A stretch of 64,000 bases of DNA from Blepharisma japonicum (lineage: Eukaryota; Ciliophora; Heterotrichea; Heterotrichida; Blepharismidae). Made by a program: the position numbers and the translations under genes. Position 1 is the stretch's first letter, and each line of letters begins with the position of its first letter. Below, in pieces: positions 14,556 to 27,333 of this stretch. Under the pieces are notes generated by a model, which searched no databases, was not told where the DNA came from, and saw only the letters and a list, made by a program, of their open reading frames with translations. The stretch is taken from the NCBI GenBank assembly GCA_949751835.1, contig CATKHK010000064.1, positions 216,001 to 280,000 of the forward strand, given 5' to 3'.

Positions 14556-16211
14556 ATGATTTTATTCCATATTCTTTTTCATCTCACCTATGGGATTATA
14601 AGTGACACAGACATCAGCTTCAGCAAACCCTCTGCAAAATCATGGACATGATTTGACTTTGAAGAAGGTGGTTGGATTGCCCTGAATCTCTCTATTACCT
14701 CCAATAGCACTGGCTCATTAGGTATCTATCTCTGTGGACTTGGCGATGTCAACTCAATCGCTAAGGAATTTAAATCGAATTTCTGCATTAATAGCACAAA
14801 TGCTGGAAATTATTCTGATTGTGACTATAATTTTACATATCCTTTTTATGGGCCGGATTACAAGAATAATACTGATTTTCTCAATTATTTAAGAAAAATT
14901 AGAATCAATAAGTTTAGTCTTACAGAAGAGGATTGGGAATTCTATTTGGAGCAGTTTATATATGATCAGACTAAGAGTGATAGAAATTTGAAAGGCCAAG
15001 ATGGCAGTGATATCACAGCCAGAATAAACAAGTCAAAGTTATATTATTTTGTTGCTGCAAATTGTGTAGAAAACAAAGTTGAATTAAGCATTGATTATAC
15101 ATTCATGAATCCAGGTGGAGAAAATTTACCAGTTGGATATATTGAAATTAAATATGCAATGAATGGTGCACAAGTAGGCTGATTATCAATAATTGGTCTT
15201 TGATTATTATCATGAATTCTCGTCAGAAAACTCAAACTTTCATTAATCCAGATTTACTTAATACTCAACTCAATGATATGAGTAGGATTTTCTTGAATGT
15301 TTAAGATCTATTGAGAAGATTATTCTGATACAGGAAAATCTGATGAGGAATTAAAAAATTGAAGCCTATATTTATTTGCTACTTCTGAGTGCTTATTCTT
15401 TTGAATTGTCATAGTCATATGCGCAGGATCTGGGATCACGAAGTCATCAATACAATGCTGAACACTTGTAAAAGCAATTTTTGTAGTCGGGTCTCTTTTT
15501 TACTGCATGAGACTTTATGTAGAGATAGGAGATGATGGATTGTTTTCGCTTTCAGGGAGTTATATTCTGATTTTAGCTATTTGCATATGAGATACAACGA
15601 AAAATAGCAGAAATTTAGCTAAACAAATACAATTAATTTCTGAAGCAGGAATTGACCCTATAAACACTCCTTTTTGATTTAAATATAGAATGTTTAGATT
15701 TCTAAGGATCACATTGGTCATTTTTATGCTTGCTCTGAGCACTTGCGTGATAATAACTGTATTTTACCTTGAATATAAGCCTTGAGTGGCAATTAGCACT
15801 CACCTCAGCATTATTTATCAGTGTTATTTGGTTCTTTTTCTATTTTTCCATTTTAGAAAACAAGATCCATTTTTTGATCAAATTGAAACTTTAAGCTTAG
15901 GCGAAAACGGACCTTTAGTATCTTTAGATGACATTCTGCAAGGAATGTTTGACAGAAATACATTATTTGCATACTCAGAGGGTATGATGCTTGTAATCAA
16001 TATTTAGCCATACGAAAAAGAGAGATTTCTCCCTATAGTTGCTGAAGTCGCAGTGATAGAACAGCCTGGAGAAATTCCAAGCTTAACTTTGGGCATCCCA
16101 ATTCGCATATATAGTTCAGAAGATAAAGACAACGAAAATGATGAAAAAGGCCTTGCTTATCAAATTGAAGACAGCTGCATATCTTTAGAAGATGTAAAAG
16201 TTGAAATATAG
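14556..16211 (+). CDS. Seven-transmembrane protein with extracellular domain (GOST/IRR-like layout)
   Basis: 546 aa; exons 14556-15992 and 16008-16211. Signal peptide at the start (MILFHILFHLTYGIIS), then a ~200-aa extracellular domain with paired cysteines and N-glycosylation sequons (NST, NYS, NFT), then seven hydrophobic helices from about residue 210 to 430, and a cytosolic tail of about 110 aa coded partly after the intron. The layout is that of GOST/intimal-thickness-receptor proteins (TMEM87, GPR107), which sit in the Golgi or plasma membrane; a distinct ciliate receptor is equally possible. More than ten Trp codons are TGA, so the frame looks broken under the standard code. Confidence 0.62.
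15993..16007 (+). other. 15-nt intron (7TM gene)
   Basis: GTAATCAATATTTAG, carrying an in-frame TAG. Removal extends the cytosolic tail by 68 codons. A at position 10. Confidence 0.85.
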
Positions 16212-25533: not shown

Positions 25534-27333
25534 ATGGCATATCATTTTGAATCATCTGAAGCTTATCTCTTTGATTTTGATTCCGAAACTTGGCAGAAAA
25601 TCGACATCGACTGGAACGAAAATTTTGGGACACGGTTTTGTGTAGTTTATTGCGGGACTTCTGTATTTCTTATTGGAGGTATTTATAATGGCACTTTAAA
25701 TAGAGTTTTGCAATTAGAAAATTCTTCTATTAGAAAACTAACACCTATGCTTTCTAATAGAGCTGACTTGTGTGCAGTATCTTCGTCAGACACAATTTAC
25801 GCTATAGGAGGATATAATGAAGAATCTGAACAAGCTTTAAACACTGTGGAAGCTTATAGTATTGAAAAAAATAAATGAACGTCTTTGCCTCAATTAATTT
25901 ACCCCAGGGTTAACTCAGCAGCAGTAATTAATGCACAATTTATCTACGTTTGTGGAGGAGTCGGAATTTCCACAATAGAAAGGTTTGACATAAATAATGA
26001 AGAATGGACTCTATCTGATTTGATTTTGCCTGTGAGCATTTCGTCGCTTGGGATTTTTATTGTAGCAAGTAGCTCTGTCATGGTTTTTGGAGGAAAAGAT
26101 GAGTCAGGGGCAGCTTTACAGAACGTGTGGATGTTTGATTTGCAGAATGAGTCAATCGTGATGCAACAGCAGCTAAGGAAGCCGTTTAGTGTAAATAAGC
26201 CTACAATATTGAGGTTTGGGATGATTTATTTGTTCAATAATAAAGAATTTACCACTTATAATATAGGGAGGCTGAGGGAAAGAACACTATCTGAGATAAG
26301 CTTGACTCCTTCAAAAATTGAGTATGTCAGAAATGAAGATTTCCTAAGAAATTCACTAGAACAAGGAATTTTTCATGTAGACAGACACTCAGTTAACTCT
26401 TTTAAAGTTTCATTACCAAACTCTCCTAAAGTTCTTATAGTAAGACGAATTGGCAAAGATGATGAAATCGAGTCAGTTTATATGAGAACAGTCAGGTATT
26501 TATTAGACAAAAACACCACAGTTTTCGTTGAAGCGGATAGGGCTAAAGACCTGAATCCCCAAGTCAGGAGGTTTCATGAAGGATTATGTGATAAAATAAA
26601 TTTAGTCATTACATTAGGAGGGGATGGGACTGTGATATGGGCTATAAGCCTTTTCAAACACAAATCAATGCCACCCTTGCTTGCTTTTAATATGGGGTCT
26701 CTCGGATTTATGACATCTTATAATGTAACTAATTTGACTGAAGTTTTAGATCAAGTTTTTACCTCCCCAAGTATTTATGTAGATTTGATGTCAAGGCTGA
26801 AATGCCATGTAAAAGATATCAGTGAAAAAGCTTGAGGCCAAGCTGCTAATGAAATATGTATTGATAGAGGTCCTGGAGTTTCTTTGTTGGAGCTAGAAGT
26901 TTATCTCAATGGAGAATTGTGCACAACAGCAATTGGAGACGGGCTGCTGATTGCTACACCATGTGGATCAACTGCTTATTCTTTATCTGCAGGTGGTTCT
27001 ATAGTACATCATGGAGTTCCAGCTATATTATTAACCCCAATATGTCCTCATTCTTTATCATTCAGACCAATTTTGCTTCCTGATTCTGTAACAATTACTA
27101 TTAAAGTCCCTGAAAATTCAAGAATACCTGCGTGGGTTGGTATTGACGGGCATTCAAAATTTAAACTTGCAAGAGGAGCATCGATGGATGTGACCGTTTC
27201 TAATTACCCTGTGCCAAGTAAGAGCTATTTAGATATAAATTTAAATCATGATATTGCGTCATGACTTGGAAGACTAAATAATATCTTAGGATGGAATGAT
27301 AGAAGACGTCAAAAACCTATTATACCTTATTAG
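25534..27333 (+). CDS. Kelch-repeat / NAD kinase fusion
   Basis: 599 aa in one frame (TGA = Trp at several points). Residues about 1-290 hold Kelch-type repeats, seen as GGIYNG, AIGGYNEES, VCGGVG and VFGGKDES with the spaced Trp/Tyr of a beta-propeller. Residues about 300-590 are a eukaryotic-type NAD kinase: LGGDGT at 361-366 (catalytic/ATP-binding), then PPLLAFNMGSLGFM, TPCGSTAYSLSAGGSIV and the ICPHSLSFRPILLPDS block. All residues expected for ATP-NAD phosphorylation appear kept. There is no stop, intron or start between the parts. The propeller may localise or regulate NADP synthesis. Confidence 0.9.

What the first reader, a model, noticed from the sequence alone, without database searches (positions are those of the whole stretch)
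25534..27333. Kelch propeller fused to NAD kinase
A single uninterrupted frame joins about 290 residues of Kelch repeats to a full NAD kinase with GGDGT. I know of no such fusion as an established architecture. It could tie NADP supply to a partner or cellular site.
Basis: partly seen in the sequence, partly recalled or inferred. Interest (0 to 1): 0.7.

Follow-up and report, generated by a model that had tools for sequence, protein, structure and literature searches.

The report
Kelch propeller fused to NAD kinase
In this ciliate-like genome the two genes found for making the coenzyme NADP both carry a protein-docking Kelch domain at their front end, a combination that none of our searches showed to be already described.

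Summary
Window 25534-27333 (+) encodes Kelch repeats (residues 1 to about 250), a linker and a complete NAD kinase (299 onward), in one frame once TGA is read as Trp (3 TGA). Code and gene density suggest a Blepharisma-like ciliate. A probable 15-base in-frame intron (27218-27232) lies in the kinase tail and does not separate the domains.

The fusion is not an assembly or annotation accident. The same genome holds a second full-length Kelch-NAD kinase (82% identical, dN/dS about 0.07) in a collinear duplicated block. No other NAD kinase passed the family cut-offs; three weaker hits are phosphofructokinases. No ATG lies between the Kelch part and the kinase's first strand.

The kinase has the family motifs and a confident predicted fold like human NADK. 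The Kelch part could not be modelled. Most likely this is a working NAD kinase placed or controlled through partners bound by the Kelch domain; the partner is unknown.

Searches of open papers listed nothing that looked like this architecture, but I saw listings only and no other ciliate genome could be searched, so novelty is provisional.

The parts
25534..27333 (+). Kelch-NAD kinase fusion gene, 599 codons plus TAG (TGA = Trp)
   Evidence: second collinear copy in the same genome
25534..26283 (+). Kelch-repeat region, residues 1 to about 250; GG doublets at 48, 92, 141, 186 and a degenerate fifth (NN 233-234)
   Evidence: Pfam Kelch families over cut-off; Kelch chains of PDB; GG spacing
26284..26427 (+). 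linker, residues 251-298; no ATG; residues 246-298 are 83% identical between copies
26428..27330 (+). NAD kinase domain (PF01513 + PF20143), residues 299-599
   Evidence: predicted fold
26617..26631 (+). GGDGT motif, residues 362-366
   Evidence: GGDG identical in 46 of 46 aligned bacterial NADKs, T in 44 of 46
26848..26853 (+). NE motif, residues 439-440
   Evidence: N in 46 of 46; D in 43 and E in 3 of 46
26956..26979 (+). Gly-rich motif TPCGSTAY, residues 475-482
   Evidence: seven of eight residues identical in 46 of 46; C477 is T in the 46 others
27218..27232 (+). probable 15-base intron GTAAG...TTTAG, phase 1, in frame
   Evidence: same place and phase in the second copy; removing it closes a 5-residue insertion against human NADK, score 112 to 124; no RNA evidence
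25876..25878 (+). TGA read as Trp115
   Evidence: TGG in the second copy
26833..26835 (+). TGA read as Trp434
   Evidence: TGG in the second copy
27262..27264 (+). TGA read as Trp577
   Evidence: TGG in the second copy

Best explanation
It is an NAD kinase (ATP + NAD to NADP) of the human/yeast type, made as one polypeptide with an N-terminal Kelch propeller where human NADK has an unrelated N-terminal tail. The Kelch part most likely docks the enzyme onto a partner protein or structure, so that NADP is made or regulated there. If the enzyme is a tetramer like human NADK, each particle would carry several propellers and bind multivalently. Shown: the fused frame, its duplication and conservation, complete kinase motifs and predicted kinase fold, no other NAD kinase over cut-off in the assembly. 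Inferred: enzyme activity, a closed (probably six-bladed) propeller, docking, tetramer, partner.
For: Domains over Pfam cut-offs. Second copy at G000:C11:493989-495782(-), collinear end to end, 82% identical; dN/dS 0.07 overall, 0.096 Kelch, 0.052 kinase; linker 83% identical with saturated dS. PF01513 and PF20143 searches of the genome each give these 2 loci and no other over cut-off; at E <= 10 three more appear for PF01513, all three phosphofructokinases. Kinase motifs as in 46 bacterial NADKs. Model: 25 of the 27 ten-residue blocks from 291 to 560 have pLDDT 82-97, the other two 75 and 79; best Foldseek match human NADK 8kgc_A, E 9e-31, TM-score 0.87 by target length. Kelch modules are joined to other domains in this genome: of 10 Kelch loci examined (of 59 Kelch-only places listed), protein kinase in 2 and RING plus B-box in 2, as expected of a shuffled interaction module.
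Against: No transcript, protein or activity data. The Kelch part has no confident model: 13 of the first 25 ten-residue blocks are under 50 and the best is 77; mean 37 as a single sequence. The Kelch part diverges faster than the kinase between copies (72% against 90% identity), which could mean loose constraint rather than one conserved partner. The neighbouring genes examined (10 ORFs) suggest no partner.
Confidence: 0.6

Rival explanations
1. The Kelch part is mainly an in-cis regulator: it folds against the kinase and changes its activity in response to a ligand, a modification or redox state, rather than placing the enzyme.
For: The linker is conserved more than the Kelch part (83% against 72%), as for a packed hinge. 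Its start holds a basic-residue-directed S/T motif in the window copy (RLRERTLSE; FKERNGSE in the other); that such motifs suit AGC kinases is recalled from no call, and a motif this short is common by chance.
Against: No model of the interface; no assay.
Confidence: 0.25
2. The Kelch part serves only stability or assembly, with no specific partner; the fusion is a neutral accident kept after it happened.
For: Faster Kelch divergence than kinase; many Kelch modules in the genome from which one could be captured (61 places match, of which 59 match only the Kelch part of the query).
Against: dN/dS of the Kelch part is 0.096, with dS about 1.9: it is clearly constrained.
Confidence: 0.12
3. There is no fusion: two adjacent genes, or a splice, make separate Kelch and kinase products.
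For: Genes here lie close together (32 bases between the Sec6 stop and this ATG); no transcript data. Other GT...AG stretches of 15 (5 more) or 16 (11) bases exist in the frame and were not excluded one by one, though 16-base removal would break the frame.
Against: One open frame in two diverged copies; in the window copy no ATG between residues 230 and 317, in the other none between 209 and 316, while the kinase's first confident strand is at 299-304; linker 83% identical with saturated dS; the only GTA...TAG candidate of 15 or 16 bases is in the kinase tail.
Confidence: 0.03

Closest known systems
Human NADK (PDB 8kgc, 9cr3, 9cr4, 3pfn)
   Same: Kinase domain: best sequence and fold matches, 33-37% identical in the structural match; the match runs to the C-terminal WN-R-Q region
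   Different: No Kelch match in human NADK chains; the match begins at query residue 290-291
Yeast NADH kinase POS5 (3afo)
   Same: Kinase core, E 1.7e-44
   Different: No Kelch match; that POS5 is mitochondrial is recalled, and no mitochondrial presequence is evident here (our reading of the acidic N-terminus, not tested)
Kelch propellers of Keap1/KLHL proteins and SAKe6 proteins
   Same: GG doublets and Trp spacing; a profile of 12 Kelch regions of this genome matches them
   Different: No BTB or BACK domain in the Pfam scan; here the Kelch part is N-terminal and followed by an enzyme
Archaeal-type bifunctional NADP phosphatase/NAD kinase (NF010678) and plant NADK2
   Same: Other NAD kinases with an added N-terminal part: NF010678 matches the kinase at 1.2e-44, 153 bits, below its cut-off of 493; AtNADK2 has a calmodulin-binding region in its N-terminal domain (PMC5890153, passages seen)
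   Different: Different added domains
Paramecium NAD kinase orthogroup OG0001678
   Same: Ciliate NAD kinase
   Different: Annotated with kinase N- and C-terminal domains, no Kelch named (PMC9608856, passage seen); the sequence was not examined

Membership tests
NAD kinase (PF01513/PF20143) | GGDG, NE/D and Gly-rich motifs (as listed in PMC5890153, passage) | tested here: met
NAD kinase (PF01513/PF20143) | two-domain NAD kinase fold | tested here: met
   (predicted model)
NAD kinase (PF01513/PF20143) | phosphorylates NAD | not testable with these tools
   needs an assay
Kelch-repeat protein | repeats over Pfam cut-off | tested here: met
   relatives in PDB
Kelch-repeat protein | closed beta-propeller | tested here: inconclusive
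   low-confidence models; four clear GG repeats, a degenerate fifth and N-terminal strands
Keap1/KLHL (BTB-BACK-Kelch) adaptor | BTB and BACK domains | tested here: not met
   none in the Pfam scan at E <= 1
Gene of a Blepharisma-type ciliate | UGA = Trp | tested here: met
   both copies end in TAG; UGA = Trp is stated for B. stoltei in PMC9942806 (passage)
Gene of a Blepharisma-type ciliate | 15-16 base introns | tested here: inconclusive
   one conserved candidate in this gene; GTA...TAG 15-mers are not enriched in the window as a whole, 18 found against 17.9 expected

The most novel reading that the evidence does not exclude
In this lineage there is no free NAD kinase: NADP synthesis is obligatorily carried on a Kelch-tethered kinase, and the two copies kept after a block duplication have diverged in the Kelch part to serve two different partners or sites.
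Probability: 0.25. Interest if true: 0.7.

Novelty: new variant of a known kind. Interest (0 to 1): 0.45.

Why it matters
NAD kinase sets the cell's NADP pool, and how eukaryotes direct that supply to places is, to my knowledge, poorly known. A genome whose only detectable NAD kinases are fused to a docking domain offers a simple way to ask whether NADP synthesis is placed or controlled by protein contacts: identify what the propeller binds.

Tried and rejected
Chance or assembly chimera: rejected, two diverged loci share the fusion. Standard code: rejected, frame broken. Further NAD kinases in the genome: three sub-threshold hits are phosphofructokinases. NanM-type epimerase propeller: weak, 25 bits against a cut-off of 45. 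One of the 80, L075, has an open frame of about 373 residues upstream, not examined further. Viral contigs: no relative of the fusion (5 stretches matched a pattern, none confirmed) or of a Kelch region from this genome (29 stretches, none confirmed); a DNA pattern for Kelch found none; the 12-row Kelch alignment had no stretch fit for searching. Kelch structure: two predictions gave no confident propeller. Intron test on the alignment with bacterial NADKs: no support; gaps there do not fall at residues 562-567 but from 569 on, in 46 of 46 rows (residues 552-579 shown), where that alignment is plainly unreliable; the direct comparison with human NADK was used instead. Papers: besides the five Kelch/NAD kinase searches, (NAD kinase architectures; Kelch in ciliates; duplication in Blepharisma) were listings only; one listed paper held the word Kelch. 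Rows dropped from the duplicated block: three window ORFs (5005, 21179, 50436; 28-38% identity) also match the C11 stretch but out of order, one antisense ORF (34772) overlaps the 34134 match, and 46850 has a second weak match.

Full report
What is there. The frame at 25534-27333 (+) starts at ATG, ends at TAG and holds 599 codons, three of them TGA. By the standard code it falls apart; three ORFs of 60 aa or more are listed. Pfam finds Kelch repeats, the NAD kinase N-terminal domain and the NAD kinase C-terminal domain over their cut-offs. The kinase part is closest among solved structures to human NADK.

Genetic code and organism. The window lies in a genome of 45.2 Mb in 224 contigs. Reading TGA as Trp is supported inside this gene: in a comparison with the second copy, of 10 aligned positions that are Trp in both, 5 are TGA in one and TGG in the other and 5 are TGG in both. 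PMC9942806 (passages seen) states for Blepharisma stoltei UGA as Trp, short intergenic regions, predominantly 15 and 16 bp introns and a 41 Mbp somatic genome. The likeness suggests a Blepharisma-like heterotrich ciliate; the assembly is unnamed here, so this is an inference.

A second copy. PF01513 and PF20143 each find two loci over cut-off in the genome, the window's and one on G000:C11. The second is also a full Kelch-NAD kinase, 598 codons, 82% identical. A Nei-Gojobori count made here gives dN/dS 0.096 for the Kelch part (dS 1.9), 0.052 for the kinase (dS 1.22) and 0.07 overall; the linker's dS is saturated while 83% of its residues are the same. So both halves and the linker have been kept as protein in both copies. 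With E up to 10 three further PF01513 places appear; all three are phosphofructokinases, which share a GGD-type motif. Within the limits of a six-frame search of this assembly, which the tool says gives lower bounds for large families and ignores introns, every NAD kinase found is a Kelch fusion.

How the copies arose. Six genes of the window (14556, 25534, 34134, 35466, 46850 and 48563) have relatives in reversed, collinear order on C11 between about 481 and 505 kb, with protein identities from 41 to 92% (only 480.5-505 kb of C11 was compared). Three other window ORFs match that stretch at 28-38% out of order and were left out. The Sec6 gene just upstream has no second copy at E <= 1e-10. This is a duplicated block with gene loss; the fusion is older than it, and both copies were kept.

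Is it one protein? In the window copy there is no ATG codon between residues 230 and 317, and in the other copy none between 209 and 316, while the kinase's first confident strand is 299-304. A separate complete kinase could therefore not start with ATG. A 15-base GTAAG...TTTAG stretch at 27218-27232 is in the same place and phase in the second copy. Taking it out removes a five-residue insertion relative to human NADK and raises the alignment score from 112 to 124. I take it as a probable intron; the protein would then be 594 residues. It lies in the kinase tail and does not separate the domains. Against it: GTA...TAG 15-mers are no more common in the window than chance (18 against 17.9), the stricter pattern gives 2 against 0.65, reached by 13 of 100 shuffles, the alignment with bacterial NADKs does not place a gap there, and there is no RNA evidence.

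Kinase. GGDG, the N of NE/D and the Gly-rich motif are kept as in all 46 bacterial NADKs aligned, save Cys for Thr at 477. AlphaFold2 gives high confidence for the kinase (25 of 27 ten-residue blocks from 291 to 560 at 82-97, the others 75 and 79; the last 39 residues 53-70) and Foldseek matches it to human NADK with TM-score 0.87 by target length. It is very likely an active enzyme; this is inferred.

Kelch part. Four clear GG repeats (48, 92, 141, 186) and a degenerate fifth, plus N-terminal strands that resemble those of other Kelch proteins of this genome, suggest a six-bladed propeller. The models do not show it: confidence is low both in the full protein (13 of the first 25 blocks under 50) and alone (mean 37), as no permitted relatives were on hand to align. 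The search with the whole protein finds 61 places in the genome, 59 of which match only the Kelch part. Of the 10 examined, two carry a protein kinase and two a RING and B-box, so Kelch is a shuffled module here.

Mechanism. The best reading is a NAD kinase tethered or directed by its Kelch domain. Regulation in cis by the propeller is the main rival. The faster divergence of the Kelch part between copies (72% against 90% identity) could mean different partners or loose constraint.

Novelty. Five paper searches for Kelch with NAD kinase wording listed 1, 8, 2, 8 and 4 papers, some of them the same; none looked relevant by title and start of abstract, and I read none of them. A Paramecium NAD kinase orthogroup is annotated with kinase domains only (PMC9608856, passage). 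Eukaryote sequence collections were not open to search, so whether other ciliates share the fusion is unknown. I rate it a new variant of a known kind.

Noticed in passing
window 14556-49144 against G000:C11 about 481-505 kb (L017, L018, L019): Collinear inverted duplicated block: six genes with relatives at 41-92% protein identity, with gene loss between them. It may be part of a larger or whole-genome duplication; not surveyed beyond this block.
   Followed up: partly
L005, L007 and L006, L009: Other Kelch fusions in the same genome: protein kinase-Kelch (two) and RING/B-box-Kelch (two).
   Followed up: partly
L100, L101, L102: Three phosphofructokinase genes with a hydrophobic, membrane-anchor-like stretch near the N-terminus, to my knowledge unusual for this enzyme.
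   Followed up: no
window 14556-16007: 483-residue membrane-like protein with no Pfam match at E <= 0.001 and 13 TGA-coded Trp; a 73% identical relative lies on C11.
   Followed up: no
L075: Bacterial NAD kinase locus with an open frame of about 373 residues before the kinase; may be chance in a long frame.
   Followed up: no
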